A DNA stretch of 64,000 nt. It comes from Oscillatoriaceae cyanobacterium Prado104 (GTDB taxonomy: Bacteria; Cyanobacteriota; Cyanobacteriia; Cyanobacteriales; Microcoleaceae). The notes under the pieces were generated by a model. The model ran no database searches, was not told where the DNA came from, and saw nothing but the letters and a program-made list of their open reading frames with translations. The stretch's first letter is position 1; each line of letters starts with the position of its first letter. Shown here piece by piece: positions 35,236 through 40,430 of this stretch. Both the position numbers and the translations under genes were made by a program. Location: assembly GCA_025454405.1 (NCBI GenBank), contig JALOON010000006.1, positions 124,001 to 188,000 of the forward strand, read 5' to 3'.

Positions 35236-35529
35236 TCAAACAATTCTGTAGGTTTCTGAATTTGCAGGCCAAGAATTGGGACGGTTGTAGGTAGGAATTG
35301 TTTCAGCACAATTAGCAGGCAAACGGATCAGCAGCAGCTCGTCTTCGGCTGCTAAAATCTTCTCTAATTCCCATCTCAATTTTTCCCGATCGCGCGCGCT
35401 CAGCCAACACCTAAAAATCGAATATTGGATTCTTTCGCCGCGACTTTGAACTAATTTGTATGCTTTTCTCCAGCGCTGGGGGCTGCGAATGTCGTAGCAA
35501 ACTAAATACCAGTTTTTTGCTTCTGCCAT
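35236..35529 (-). CDS. cas2: CRISPR-associated endonuclease Cas2
   Basis: 97 residues. The N-terminal YLVCYDIRSPQRWRKAYKLV carries the conserved first-strand Asp, and RIQYSIFRCWLS the second strand. Forms the spacer-integration complex with Cas1. Its ATG (RBS GAGGCG) lies 9 bases beyond the cas1 stop on the same strand, so it is the last gene of the locus. Confidence 0.95.
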   Translation of the reverse strand: MAEAKNWYLVCYDIRSPQRWRKAYKLVQSRGERIQYSIFRCWLSARDREKLRWELEKILAAEDELLLIRLPANCAETIPTYNRPNSWPANSETYRIV

Positions 35530-35538
35530 TGTATCGCC

Positions 35539-36837
35539 TCAGCGCAAAATTAATTGACCGAACAAACCGCTTTCTTCCGACCATTCTTTTTCCAAGAGGC
35601 GCACTTCTAATTCAAACAGGCGGCGGTAGCTGAGGGAATAATTTGTGACAGGATGCTTCCAGGTTTCTTGTTTGCGGGATTCGTACAAACCGATTAGTTT
35701 GCGACAGCCGGATTCGCTCAACCAAACTCGATCGCCCCGAATGTCGAAATCTGCTTGCACTTCCCATTGATTGCGGTTGATGGAGGCGATAACTGTCATG
35801 TCAACGATCGGTACTCGGAAAATTTCAATTAAATCTAGGGCTAAAGGTGGTGCTTGAGAGCGCGGTTGGTGGTAAAATCCCAATGCTGGCTCCAATCCAA
35901 CTGTTAAAATAGCGTTGGTGATATCTTTGAGCAGCAAGGCGTAGCCGAAGCCGATTAAAGCATTGAATCGGTCTTTGGGCGGGCGGCGGTTGCGATCGCA
36001 AAAGTGCATTTCTGGGGGCGCGCCAGGACGGATTAAATAAGGCAAAGCGCCGAAATAAAGATTGCCTATTTTGCCTTCAAAGCCCAGCAGCGACGCTAGA
36101 GATTTCACTTGGGGAACTTGTTTTAAAAGAATTTGCATTTGGGCGATCGCCCGTTTTAATTCTTCGGAATTTTTCTGAATTCCGCGACTTCCCCGCATTA
36201 AGAATTTGCGCTGTCCTTGGCCGCGACAAATTACTAATTTGCGGGCTAATTCCAAACAGCGATCGGGATTGGTGAGGGCGGCATACTGGCGGATGCGGCG
36301 CTGAATGCTGCCTTGCCTGCTGTCAAAACTGCCGAGGTAGCGCCCGCCCCCGGAAATAAAATGCACTCCGATGCCCGAGTCGGCGCAAAAGTGCAAAGCT
36401 TGGGTGGAAATTTGCGAGAAACTGTGGAGTACTATTTGACTGATTTGCTGGCTGGGAATAGTTTCTACGGGTCGATCGCGGCGGGAAATTTTGATTTGCC
36501 CTCCGGTGCGGCCGACTGCGGTTCCGGGTTCGAGTACGTGCACGATTTGGCGATCGTCGTCGGCGGGAAAGAGGCGGGCGGGCTGCCATTCGGGATCGCT
36601 GGCGAGTCTGGCTTCTTCGGGGAGGCAGACTGGGGCGAGGGAACAGCGAGTGCAGAGGTTTTCGTTGTCGGTGACTGGGGGGCGTTGGGTGGAAAGTCGC
36701 AGCGATCGGGCTGTTTCGACGGCTGCGCGAACTTCGGCGCGGGCCGAGTCGTCGAGGGGGACGCGAACCAGTACGTTGTCGGCGTGGTAGCGGATTCTGC
36801 CTTCTGGAACGGTGATGCCTTTGGTGGATTCGAGGAG
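35539..36837 (-). CDS. cas1: Cas1 with the C-terminal remnant of a Cas4-Cas1 fusion (interrupted)
   Basis: The open frame runs from 36837 without a stop. The Cas1 part (from VHVLEPGTAVG at about 36543) has the catalytic Glu (LLGFEGKIGN), His (LGFYHQPRS) and acidic pair (DLIEIFRVPIVDM), so it looks intact. Upstream, in the same frame, are about 98 residues of Cas4 C-terminus: GITVPEGRIRYHADNVLVRV and the iron-sulphur cysteines CTRCSLAPVC. This is the family-typical Cas4-Cas1 fusion, but the 5' part is cut off by the TnpB element. Expression of Cas1 would need an internal start (for example GTG at 36543) or read-through. Confidence 0.93.
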   Translation of the reverse strand, partial: LLESTKGITVPEGRIRYHADNVLVRVPLDDSARAEVRAAVETARSLRLSTQRPPVTDNENLCTRCSLAPVCLPEEARLASDPEWQPARLFPADDDRQIVHVLEPGTAVGRTGGQIKISRRDRPVETIPSQQISQIVLHSFSQISTQALHFCADSGIGVHFISGGGRYLGSFDSRQGSIQRRIRQYAALTNPDRCLELARKLVICRGQGQRKFLMRGSRGIQKNSEELKRAIAQMQILLKQVPQVKSLASLLGFEGKIGNLYFGALPYLIRPGAPPEMHFCDRNRRPPKDRFNALIGFGYALLLKDITNAILTVGLEPALGFYHQPRSQAPPLALDLIEIFRVPIVDMTVIASINRNQWEVQADFDIRGDRVWLSESGCRKLIGLYESRKQETWKHPVTNYSLSYRRLFELEVRLLEKEWSEESGLFGQLILR

Positions 36838-36900
36838 TTAAACTTAAGTGCCAAAAAGTTTGCTAAACTTGTCCGCAGTTAACTACCGAGAAGAGGTTCC

Positions 36901-37992
36901 ATGTTTGCCATCAAGCGAGCGCTCAAATTGAATAATCGGGAAGCGACCTTGATGGCAAAACACGCAGGGTTTCGGCGTGTAGTTTTTAATATGGGATTGA
37001 GCTTGCGAGTCCAAATGTACGGTGTTCTTGAGTTTTCCGACTCAAAGGTCATCAACGAAGTCAAGAAAGTTCTGACCAACCAAGTCAAGAAACAGCCCGA
37101 ATGCGCATGGATGAACCAGTTGTCTTCTCGTGTTTACCAAAATGCTTTGATTGACTTGAAGAAAGCATTCGCAAGGTATCGAGAGGGAAAAGCCGGTCAT
37201 CCGAAGTTTGCCAGCCGCCGGGACGGGCAATCTTTTACAGTTGATTCTTCTAATGGCAAAGTTTTGCTAAAAGCTGGCAATACTATCAAGATTCCCACGC
37301 TGGGAACTTTTCGGCTTGACGAACCACTCCCGCAGGGGTTGGCATCTCAAACTTTTACGATTTCAAAAGAAGGAAATCGCTGGTTTGTTTCTTTTTGCGT
37401 TGATGCTGAACGTCTCCCGGTTCAACAACCTAAAGGTTCCGTAGGAATTGACATTGGTATTAAGTCATTTGCCACCCTGTCAACTCAGCAGGTCTTTGAT
37501 GCGCCAAAGCCTTTGCAGCAAGCGAAAACCAAGCTTGCTACCTTACAGCGCAAGGCTCATCGGCAAATAAAAGGTTCTCGCAACCAACGCAAAACTTACA
37601 ACAAGATCTGCAGACTCCACGCACGGATAGCCTGCATTCGTAAGGATTTCCTTCACAAGTTGACAACTTATTTAGCGAAAACATTCAAGCTAATTAAGGT
37701 TGAAGACTTGAATGTTAAAGGATTGCTGGCGAATCACAAGCTGGCTGGAGCAATATCCGACTTGGGATTTTACGAATTCAGGCGACAACTAGAGTACAAA
37801 TGCAAAATGTATGGAGCGAGCTTAGTGCTGGTAGATCGGTGGTTTCCCAGTTCTAAGATTTGCTCGAATTGCACAGCTAAAAAAGATATGCCTTTGCAAG
37901 TGAGAAATTACGATTGTCCTGCTTGCGGCTTGTCAATAGATCGCGATTTGAATGCCAGTTTAAATATTTTAAACTGGGAACCCTCGGCTTGA
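36901..37992 (+). CDS. tnpB: RNA-guided endonuclease TnpB (OrfB)
   Basis: 363 residues, a normal length. The RuvC-like triad is visible: Asp in GIDIGIKSFATLS, Glu in IKVEDLNVKGLL and Asp in SIDRDLNASLNIL. The zinc finger is CSNCTAKK...CPACG, and the N-terminal FNMGLSLRVQMYG region is preserved. Nothing suggests decay. TnpB uses an RNA from the element's right end to cut DNA matching the flanking sequence, helping element retention. RBS GAAGAGG precedes the ATG. It runs opposite to the cas genes. Confidence 0.95.
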   Translation: MFAIKRALKLNNREATLMAKHAGFRRVVFNMGLSLRVQMYGVLEFSDSKVINEVKKVLTNQVKKQPECAWMNQLSSRVYQNALIDLKKAFARYREGKAGHPKFASRRDGQSFTVDSSNGKVLLKAGNTIKIPTLGTFRLDEPLPQGLASQTFTISKEGNRWFVSFCVDAERLPVQQPKGSVGIDIGIKSFATLSTQQVFDAPKPLQQAKTKLATLQRKAHRQIKGSRNQRKTYNKICRLHARIACIRKDFLHKLTTYLAKTFKLIKVEDLNVKGLLANHKLAGAISDLGFYEFRRQLEYKCKMYGASLVLVDRWFPSSKICSNCTAKKDMPLQVRNYDCPACGLSIDRDLNASLNILNWEPSA

Positions 37993-38102
37993 GGGGGATA
38001 GCCTGCTTACCTTGGGATGGTCGGCCACCCAACAGCGCAGGAAGTGAGTTCTGAATTTTGGCTAAAGATGGCTTTGGTCAAGTTTGGGTAAGTTTTACGA
38101 AG
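37940..38102 (+). ncRNA. Candidate omega-RNA region at the TnpB element right end
   Basis: In TnpB elements the guide RNA overlaps the 3' end of tnpB and runs through the right-end hairpin into flanking DNA. Here a nested hairpin (37998-38041) lies after the tnpB stop. A transcript through the end would carry antisense cas4 sequence as its guide. This is inference from position and folding; no homologous omega-RNA was compared. Confidence 0.4.
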
Positions 38103-38216
38103 CAGTTCTTCGACTTCTTCGAGGTAGAAAAGGCGGGGACAATAGGCGAGGGCGTGGAGGGCGCTGACGCGAATTGTGTCGTGTTTTTCTTCTGGGTTAT
38201 TGTTTGGTGTTTGCAT
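38103..38216 (-). pseudogene. cas4: Cas4 N-terminal fragment, truncated by the TnpB element
   Basis: 38 residues of authentic Cas4 (of a Cas4-Cas1 fusion): IRVSALHALAYCPRLFYLEE with the first iron-sulphur Cys, then VEEL, after which the frame runs into element sequence and stops at 38007. The RecB-like nuclease motifs, normally in the following 110 or so residues, are found neither here nor in the C-terminal remnant at 36544-36837, so Cas4 nuclease activity is predicted lost. The start lies 27 bases beyond the last CRISPR repeat. Confidence 0.9.
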
Positions 38217-38829: not shown

Positions 38830-39483
38830 CTATGATATTGACTGAGGGCCGATCGAGCTCCAGCAATCGTTGAATGCCAGCGCATCCGCTAGGGACAAAT
38901 CCCCCGCATCAGCCAGAACATACCGACCCCACCGAGTCTTTTTAGAACCCGCACGATCGGTCCAGCAAGGCAGCGCTAAATACCCGTTTCGATCGGACAC
39001 CAACCACTCGCAAATATCTGCTTCAAAGTTCGATCGCCACAGCACAACAGAGTTAATTAAATCCCTGCTTTCACCAAGCGACAGCCCTCCAAATCTCCTC
39101 ACTGATTCTGGGTTTACCATAGCTTCTTGCAACCTTTCCAACAGCTTTGGTTTCCCAACATCATCGCCGGCATCAACCCAGATTCCCAAATCAATACCGG
39201 TTAGCAACTCTTGAAAATCCGGCCGCGCATTCCGCTTGTCAAACTCCTGTTTAGCAACTTTAACTCGGCGAATAGTGCGCAGGACAGTAGAACGATTCGG
39301 TTTCGATAAAAGCGCGATCGCAATTTGACAGCCGCAGTGAGAATAACGGTTAATTTCTCCCACCATTGACAGCAGCATTCCGTACACCGTAGCCGGAGGC
39401 GGCACCGGATAACTTTCCCCGTATTCCCGTGCATAGGAATGCCGCCAGCCAGCAACGGGAACCTCAATTCGCAACCCAATCAT
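38830..39483 (-). CDS. cas5: Cas5, DevS-type
   Basis: 217 residues from the ATG at 39483, which overlaps the cas7 stop by four bases (ATGA). An upstream ATG in the frame is rejected because the family begins IGLRIEVPVAGWRHSY. The N-terminal GESYPVPPPATVYGMLLSMVGE is the Cas5 hallmark (substrate-like loop after beta-1). Part of Cascade, capping the 5' handle of the crRNA. The sequence resembles the Cas5 of MYXAN/Dev systems. Confidence 0.88.
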   Translation of the reverse strand: MIGLRIEVPVAGWRHSYAREYGESYPVPPPATVYGMLLSMVGEINRYSHCGCQIAIALLSKPNRSTVLRTIRRVKVAKQEFDKRNARPDFQELLTGIDLGIWVDAGDDVGKPKLLERLQEAMVNPESVRRFGGLSLGESRDLINSVVLWRSNFEADICEWLVSDRNGYLALPCWTDRAGSKKTRWGRYVLADAGDLSLADALAFNDCWSSIGPQSIS

Positions 39484-40430
39484 GCCACCTCCTCGTTGTT
39501 GATATCCGACAAAATTACTGCTTGCAAATCCCTCACCGCCTGCTTGATTCCCGCAAATACTTTTACCCCAAGCTCTTCTAATTCTGCCACTTCTGGTTCC
39601 AGGGCGATCGCGCCTGCAATCCACACTTCATTTGGATCGATATCTCCCGCCTCAATGCGGCGAACTAAATCGGCTATTGACACTTTTCCTTGCCGATTTT
39701 CCTCAAAACAATAAAGCAACCGAGGAGCAAAATCGTGAGTCCACCTGAGTACCATACTTTCAGGAGAAAAATCGTAAAGAAACCGCGCGTGATTTCCCGC
39801 AACGCTTCCCAGAGAAGTTAAAGCATCCAAAACAGAAACAATCCGATTTGCGACTTTCAAACGGTGCGGAGTCATCGCAAAACCGTACTGATAGCGAGTC
39901 GCGTGCGCCTCGGTTTGATGGATAGACTTTCGGTCTTTTTTGCCGCTAGTCGAGCCAAAAAACATATCGCCCGTATCCGCAGTTAAAGAAATTGCGCGAG
40001 TCACTTCTAGCACTCCCCGGCGAGCAATACTTTCTCCTTTTCTGAGTTTAGCTTTGCCCTTACCTTTTTTAGGAGTTGGCGTTTCTTCGATCGATTCAGG
40101 AATCCCATCATTATTGATATCTTCCGCTGCTGCTTTCGCCTCCATGTAACCCAAAACATCATCATCAATGTATATCTCTGGATTAAAAACTCCTTCTTGA
40201 ACGCGATAGTTTTCATTTTTATCATCATCCCACTTGCGGTTGACTTCTTCTCCTAAAAACTGCCACTGATAGCGAATTGCCCACCGAATCGCTTCAGCCG
40301 AAACAGTAGTGCGCAGCGAATTTTTCCAAGCCAATCGCTGCAAAGTCGTGACGTTACCTTGATTTTCGCCGCGATTGTTGGCGGCGATACCGTAATTGGT
40401 CAAAATGTTGCCAAACAAATGATATGTCAT
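39480..40430 (-). CDS. cas7: Cas7, DevR-type backbone subunit
   Basis: 316 residues. The N-terminal YHLFGNILTNYGIAANNRGEN and the middle SLTADTGDMFFGSTSG with HATRYQYGFAMTP match the DevR/Cst2-type Cas7 that coats the crRNA spacer. The large loop around residues 85-140 (charged, KKGKGKAKLRKG) is a variable insertion. Gene order cas8-cas7-cas5 is as expected; it is preceded by an unusually long gap of 344 bases and overlaps cas5. Confidence 0.9.
   Translation of the reverse strand: MTYHLFGNILTNYGIAANNRGENQGNVTTLQRLAWKNSLRTTVSAEAIRWAIRYQWQFLGEEVNRKWDDDKNENYRVQEGVFNPEIYIDDDVLGYMEAKAAAEDINNDGIPESIEETPTPKKGKGKAKLRKGESIARRGVLEVTRAISLTADTGDMFFGSTSGKKDRKSIHQTEAHATRYQYGFAMTPHRLKVANRIVSVLDALTSLGSVAGNHARFLYDFSPESMVLRWTHDFAPRLLYCFEENRQGKVSIADLVRRIEAGDIDPNEVWIAGAIALEPEVAELEELGVKVFAGIKQAVRDLQAVILSDINNEEVA

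What the first reader, a model, noticed from the sequence alone, without database searches (positions are those of the whole stretch)
35539..38216. TnpB element splits a Cas4-Cas1 fusion and the Cas4 core is missing
The Cas4 N-terminus (to VEEL, about 38103) and C-terminus (from about GITVPEG, 36837) lie on either side of an intact tnpB, in the same strand and order. Normal Cas4-Cas1 fusions have about 110 residues, including the RecB-type nuclease motifs, between these points; they are absent. IS200/IS605 insertion does not by itself delete target DNA, so there was a deletion or a replacement. The result is a Cas1/Cas2 pair without active Cas4, next to a two-spacer array, as expected if adaptation is impaired.
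Basis: partly seen in the sequence, partly recalled or inferred. Interest (0 to 1): 0.8.

Follow-up and report, generated by a model that had tools for sequence, protein, structure and literature searches.

The report
Jumping element replaces Cas4 nuclease core
A small jumping element in a cyanobacterium sits in a CRISPR memory-making gene where exactly 85 codons, the DNA-cutting core, are missing, and at least two sister copies of the same element elsewhere also stand where a clean stretch of gene was lost, which hints that this kind of element can cut out DNA between two of its landing sites.

Summary
In a type I-MYXAN CRISPR-Cas locus a 1268-bp tnpB-only element (36838-38105, +) splits the cas4-cas1 fusion; exactly 85 codons (255 bp, not about 110 residues) with the RecB-type motifs are missing. 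The gap is in none of 48 scored relatives. Sibling copies fix the element's ends: it lands 3' of RGAG and ends in GCAG. The left junction is a native GGAG site; the loss begins exactly at the right end, where both intact fusions of the genus have GGAG. Ten sibling insertions were tested against relatives: 7 are clean, but 2 also stand in place of lost native coding DNA (210 and 1433 bp), one more perhaps (627 bp); in all three the right break point follows RGAG in a relative (chance about 0.5% per position). So the loss is most likely caused by the element, between two target motifs, probably by its transposase. The closest relative lost a different part of Cas4. Impaired adaptation is plausible but untested: cas1 and cas2 are open and the genome has a separate type I-D cas4. 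A disrupted cas gene is ordinary; the repeated target-to-target deletion is the interesting part.

The parts
36838..38105 (+). tnpB-only IS200/IS605-type element, 1268 bp
   Evidence: Ends fixed by 28 distinct left ends and 36 distinct right ends in the genus, the window's own included; 18 of 21 copies with both ends are 1267-1288 bp, 3 are shortened
36834..36837 (+). target motif GGAG next to the left end, native cas4 sequence (codons of LLES)
   Evidence: GAG at 24 of 28 left ends, at 3 more with a 1-nt shift, CAG at one; same bases in L043
36901..37992 (+). tnpB, 363 aa
   Evidence: PF01385, PF07282, NF040570 over cut-off; dN/dS 0.06-0.15 against 13 full-length ungapped homologues printed
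37979..38105 (+). right end, probable omega-RNA scaffold ending in GAAGCAG
   Evidence: 34 consensus pairs, 9 with compensatory changes, 17 sequences
38106..38125 (+). would-be guide: first 20 nt after the right end, cas4 codons upstream of the gap
   Evidence: 19 of 20 nt match intact cas4 of L056 and L079 behind GGAG; 17-19 of 20 in the 7 relatives compared
38106..38216 (-). Cas4 N-terminal remnant, 37 codons; its frame runs 32 codons into the element and stops
36544..36837 (-). Cas4 C-terminal remnant with three cysteines; no ATG, GTG or TTG in frame
35539..36543 (-). cas1 (MYXAN type); the only in-frame ATG/GTG/TTG start before its domain is GTG 36543
   Evidence: TIGR03983, E 1.2e-160; starts listed
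35236..35529 (-). cas2
   Evidence: PF09827, TIGR01573
38243..38425 (-). CRISPR array: 3 repeats, 2 spacers, last repeat degenerate
   Evidence: the repeat core occurs only here in the genome at up to 2 mismatches
38830..39489 (-). cas5 (DevS/Cmx5)
   Evidence: TIGR02586
39480..40430 (-). cas7 (DevR/Cst2)
   Evidence: TIGR02585
40775..42457 (-). cas8 (Cas8a1/Csx13)
   Evidence: TIGR03485, TIGR03486
42438..44915 (-). cas3
   Evidence: TIGR01587
44912..45556 (-). cas6 (Cmx6)
   Evidence: TIGR02807

Best explanation
A tnpB-only IS200/IS605-type element stands in cas4-cas1 in place of the 255 bp that lay between two of its own target motifs. Shown: the left junction is a native GGAG site; the right junction is the exact end of the element; exactly 85 codons are gone; two sibling copies elsewhere show the same pattern with 210 and 1433 bp of native coding DNA lost. 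Inferred: that the right break point followed RGAG in the direct ancestor too, and that the Y1 transposase, which cuts single-stranded DNA 3' of the target motif, joined the element's two ends to two different target cuts, or moved the left end to a second motif upstream, and so dropped the piece between. The result is a Cas4 without nuclease motifs, cut in two, and a Cas1 that can start only at GTG 36543.
For: Element ends and target motif. Native GGAG at the left site in L043. GGAG at the right break point in both intact fusions found in the genus, L056 and L079 (same DNA as genomes G001 and G018), RGAG in 15 of 48 scored relatives. Copy L153: in G012 the same flanks enclose 1433 bp of one open gene, GGAG before the left cut and AGAG before the right. 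Copy L148: in G017, G003 and G012 the flanks enclose 210 bp without likeness to the element (read as one open gene in G012); left AGAG in 1 of 3, right GGAG in 1 of 3, GGAA in the others. Copy L146: 627 bp in G012, GAG left and GGAG right. RGAG occurs at about 0.5-0.7% of positions.
Against: The ancestral codon at the window's right break point is unknown: L043 has lost it, the nearest rows of the tree (built with a faulty L043 row) are GAAG (L049, L051), and 27 of 48 relatives have AAAG. CTC, the codon needed, is common in the cas4-cas1 frame (18 of 31 CTN; 7 of 8 in L043) but not in cas7 (2 of 9) or cas8 (4 of 20). 7 of 10 tested copies are clean. In L146 the interval of the one relative holds, in my reading of its translation, a relic of another tnpB and may be an insertion there. 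No transposase of this family was identified (4 Y1 matches in the genome, not examined).
Confidence: 0.6

Rival explanations
1. Two copies of the element inserted in the same orientation at the two target motifs, and recombination between them removed one copy and the interval.
For: Gives the same exact junctions at both ends.
Against: Needs two close insertions in each case; among the right ends listed no two lie near each other in the same orientation (closest pair 4.2 kb apart, opposite strands, G003), and none of 63 loci with a right end held two.
Confidence: 0.2
2. Deletion first: slippage between two GAG motifs removed 255 bp of cas4 and the element later landed at the GAG left at the joint.
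For: Slippage would leave a target motif at the joint; both halves are in one frame; Cas4 was hit by another lesion in L043.
Against: Needs the insertion to choose the very motif that marks the joint, and the same in L148 and L153; no scored relative of cas4 has the gap without the element, and the relatives fetched for the two siblings have the interval.
Confidence: 0.08
3. Insertion at the left GGAG, then an unrelated deletion of the right flank that ended at the element by chance.
For: 33 of 48 relatives do not have RGAG at the right break point.
Against: The break falls exactly on the element boundary here and in L148 and L153, each time behind RGAG in a relative.
Confidence: 0.07
4. Assembly error: the core is present in the cell but was skipped at a repeated element.
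For: Many copies of the family in the genome; raw reads not seen.
Against: The nearest full copy in the genome is only 81% identical in DNA; both flanks are cas4 in order inside a 237-kb contig; no separate core found.
Confidence: 0.03
5. TnpB has taken over a role in the CRISPR locus in place of the Cas4 nuclease.
For: tnpB is open, its family is under purifying selection, and it sits where the nuclease core was.
Against: Opposite strand, own conserved right end, many stand-alone copies in the genus; in the DNA held of 53 related loci only one distant tnpB (L092, 30% identity).
Confidence: 0.02

Closest known systems
IS200/IS605-family TnpB elements (ISDra2, IS608)
   Same: Insertion 3' of a short fixed motif without target duplication, structured right end, TnpB domains; in ISDra2 the motif is the TAM (PMC8612924, passages read)
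   Different: Motif RGAG; no tnpA in the element; native DNA between two motifs lost in this and at least two sibling copies
Cas4-Cas1 fusion of type I-G (Geobacter sulfurreducens, PDB 7mi4; Methanosarcina barkeri, PMC10504553, passages read)
   Same: Cas4 fused N-terminally to Cas1; intact relative L079 matches 7mi4 over residues 21-555
   Different: Here type I-MYXAN, and the Cas4 nuclease core is gone
Type I-MYXAN (MxI-B) CRISPR-Cas of myxobacteria (PMC11237760, passages read)
   Same: Cas6, Cas3, Cas8a1, Cas7/DevR, Cas5/DevS, Cas1, Cas2 by profile; Cas1 fused with Cas4 there
   Different: Cyanobacterial host; broken Cas4

Membership tests
Type I-MYXAN CRISPR-Cas | Profile matches for cas6, cas3, cas8a1/csx13, cas7/DevR, cas5/DevS, cas1_MYXAN, cas2 | tested here: met
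Functional Cas4-Cas1 fusion | RecB-type nuclease motifs of Cas4 present | tested here: not met
   85 codons holding these motifs (named from memory) absent
Functional Cas4-Cas1 fusion | One reading frame through Cas4 and Cas1 | tested here: not met
   split by the element; the N-terminal frame stops inside it
IS200/IS605-type TnpB element | TnpB domains | tested here: met
IS200/IS605-type TnpB element | Fixed target motif 5' of the left end, no target duplication | tested here: met
IS200/IS605-type TnpB element | Insertion without loss of target DNA | tested here: inconclusive
   7 of 10 tested sibling copies clean, 2 with loss, 1 unresolved; the window copy with loss
IS200/IS605-type TnpB element | Own Y1 transposase tnpA | tested here: not met
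   4 Y1 matches in the genome at E up to 0.001, none on this contig
IS200/IS605-type TnpB element | RNA-guided cleavage with RGAG as TAM | not testable with these tools
   inferred from ISDra2

The most novel reading that the evidence does not exclude
This family has a regular deletion mode: its Y1 transposase can join the two ends of the element to two different RGAG cuts on the same single strand, so that the element replaces the DNA between them (210, 255, perhaps 627, and 1433 bp seen). In the window this removed the Cas4 core, and the new guide of TnpB matches intact cas4 of congeners, so TnpB could even help to spread the deleted allele (this last step I would give about 0.1).
Probability: 0.45. 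Interest if true: 0.65.

Novelty: new variant of a known kind. Interest (0 to 1): 0.5.

Why it matters
IS200/IS605 elements are taken to insert without harming the target beyond the insertion itself. Base-exact loss of 210 to 1433 bp between two target motifs at several copies of one family would mean that such elements also remove DNA in a patterned way, which a simple transposition assay can test. It also shows the Cas4 part of a fusion lost by different lesions in two close relatives while cas1 and cas2 stay open.

Tried and rejected
On rechecking, the 3 of 10 queried copies left aside were followed up and two of them show losses too; the claim was withdrawn, odds and scores were raised for that reason, and the chance-deletion and deletion-first rivals lowered.

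Right break point: the notebook entry says L079 has CTGCAC behind VEE; one search shows CTCCAC, so that note is wrong.

Tree: L043 went in with a wrong reading frame and is meaningless; only the place of the window among the other rows was used; the window piece was one base out of frame; one search used instead. Alignment holds one mis-placed row (L128), left out (17 of 18 rows kept). One search dropped matches that began more than 12 bases into the left end or stopped before base 90 of the right end, and repeated identical junctions. For L146 two further places (L225, L227) have the flanks overlapping or out of order (paralogous genes) and were not used. For L110 genome G009 has 72 bp between the flanks that look like remains of the element's two ends. 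Repeat counts used a loose pattern and were not used. Array length was rejected as a measure of lost adaptation.

Not tested: the other 10 of 20 sibling copies with both ends (no genome searches left).

Literature: searches. No listed title or abstract start describes a TnpB element in a cas4-cas1 fusion or deletion between two target motifs by an IS200/IS605 element; the listed papers were not read through. Seen: abstract and one section of PMC11870625; passages of PMC8612924, PMC11237760, PMC10504553, PMC6519985. PMC6547450 is not held.

Full report
What is there. On the minus strand, 45556 to 35236, lies a type I-MYXAN CRISPR-Cas locus: cas6, cas3, cas8, cas7 (DevR), cas5 (DevS), a short array, cas4-cas1 and cas2. 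The array has three repeats and two spacers; the repeat core occurs nowhere else in the genome at up to 2 mismatches. The cas4-cas1 gene is split by a tnpB on the plus strand.

Limits of the element. Of 28 distinct left ends in the genus (the window's included) 24 follow GAG directly, 3 with a 1-nt shift and one follows CAG; the base before is A or G in nearly all. Of 36 distinct right ends 35 end in GCAG and one in GCAC. The window element is 36838-38105; 18 of 21 copies with both ends are 1267-1288 bp and 3 are shortened. The right end has a conserved RNA-like fold (34 pairs, 9 with compensatory change, 17 sequences), and tnpB has dN/dS of 0.06 to 0.15 against 13 homologues.

What is missing. 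Of 53 related loci, 46 have exactly 85 codons between VEE and the junction codon, one 87, one 79, and five could not be scored. None of the 48 scored has the gap. In L079 the missing residues are 40-124. They hold the stretches GLRGRLDAL, PYEHKRGR and QILSYA, which I name from memory as the RecB-type D, E-x-K and Q motifs; the alignment with PDB 7mi4 covers them. The cysteine of YCPRL and three of CTRCSLAPVC remain on different fragments. The missing piece, searched as a protein in the own genome, matched only the type I-D cas4.

The junctions. The left junction reads GGATTCGAGGAG and then the element; L043, the closest relative (86-87% in DNA), has the same bases in uninterrupted cas4. The sequence after the right end belongs 255 bp away. 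Before it, on the plus strand, both intact fusions found in the genus (L056, L079) have GGAG; among 48 scored relatives 15 have RGAG and 27 AAAG. In the cas4-cas1 frame CTC, which gives GAG, is 18 of 31 CTN codons (7 of 8 in L043), but only 2 of 9 in cas7 and 4 of 20 in cas8. So at the window alone the case for a second target motif is fair, not closed.

Sibling copies. Joined flanks of 10 of the 20 other copies with both ends were searched in 29 genomes of the genus (the list was cut). Seven empty sites were aligned: five exact at the joint, one with a 2-nt difference, one without the full motif but without a gap at the joint. The other three are different. L148: in three genomes its flanks enclose 210 bp with no likeness to the element, read in G012 as one open gene; the left cut follows AGAG in one of them (GAA in two), the right cut GGAG in one (GGAA in two). 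L153: in G012 the flanks are colinear and enclose 1433 bp of one long open gene; the left cut follows GGAG and the right AGAG. L146: in G012 the flanks enclose 627 bp, GAG left and GGAG right, but that stretch seems to hold a relic of another tnpB, so it may be an insertion in G012. L146 and L147 (G007, G006) have nearly the same flanks and count as one event. RGAG stands at 0.5 to 0.7% of positions in such DNA, so RGAG before the right cut in all three is not likely to be chance, even allowing three relatives for L148.

How it may work. In ISDra2 and IS608 the transposase cuts single-stranded DNA of the lagging-strand template and inserts 3' of the motif (PMC8612924, passages). If the two ends of the element were joined to two motif cuts on one single strand, or the left end were moved to a second motif upstream, the interval would be lost with exact junctions. 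The lengths, 210 to 1433, fit the length of an Okazaki fragment (recalled). Recombination between two insertions would give the same joints, but no close pair in the same orientation is among the right ends listed, and none of 63 loci holds two. TnpB cutting alone would not place the break at the motif (inference).

Relatives. L043 has lost the first part of cas4: the last repeat of its array is followed directly by cas4 codons, and cas4 has a frameshift before cas1, while 334 codons of cas1 are open. In L083 a repeat-like sequence also runs into a shortened cas4, and its cas1 match stops at residue 341 of 432. Of 29 genomes of the genus, the own included, 7 have a cas1 match and in three of them it is a short relic.

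Function. Cas4 in fusions trims the PAM end and sets orientation (PMC10504553, passages), so its loss should harm new spacers; this was not tested. Cas1 can start only at GTG 36543 among ATG, GTG and TTG, without a Shine-Dalgarno-like sequence that I can see. A separate cas4 lies beside a type I-D cas1. dN/dS of cas1 and cas2 against L043 is 0.12 and 0.16, averaged over the time before the break.

Verdict. The deletion is most likely the element's own doing, between two of its target motifs, as in at least two sibling copies. Impaired adaptation stays open. The would-be guide matches intact cas4 at 19 of 20 nt behind GGAG, so TnpB might act on cas4-positive alleles; this is a guess.

Noticed in passing
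L043:4777-4830: The last full repeat of the array directly abuts cas4 codons (break within a base or so of the repeat end); the N-terminal part of Cas4 is lost, and cas4 has a frameshift before cas1.
   Followed up: partly
L083:4600-4760: A repeat-like sequence runs straight into a shortened cas4, as in L043 but in another lineage.
   Followed up: partly
L231:5960-7229 and L229:14063-15495: Sibling element in place of 1433 bp of a long CheR-like/PAS-like open gene that is whole in genome G012 (gene type read by eye from the translation).
   Followed up: yes
L232:4364-5651 and L221:399-608: Sibling element in place of 210 bp that three other genomes keep (read as one open gene in G012).
   Followed up: yes
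L106:10085-10429, L107:9660-10004, L108:9098-9358: Three congeners keep only a short relic of cas1 of this locus.
   Followed up: partly
L172 (583 bp), L113 (382 bp), L169 (314 bp): Internally shortened copies of the element with both ends kept.
   Followed up: no
L182:15506-18337: Separate type I-D cas4 and cas1 near a contig end, with a 95-aa open frame where cas2 would be, without a profile match.
   Followed up: partly
L090:4440-5000: Cas4 of a Blastocatellia fusion carries a long Ser/Gly-rich insert in its core.
   Followed up: no
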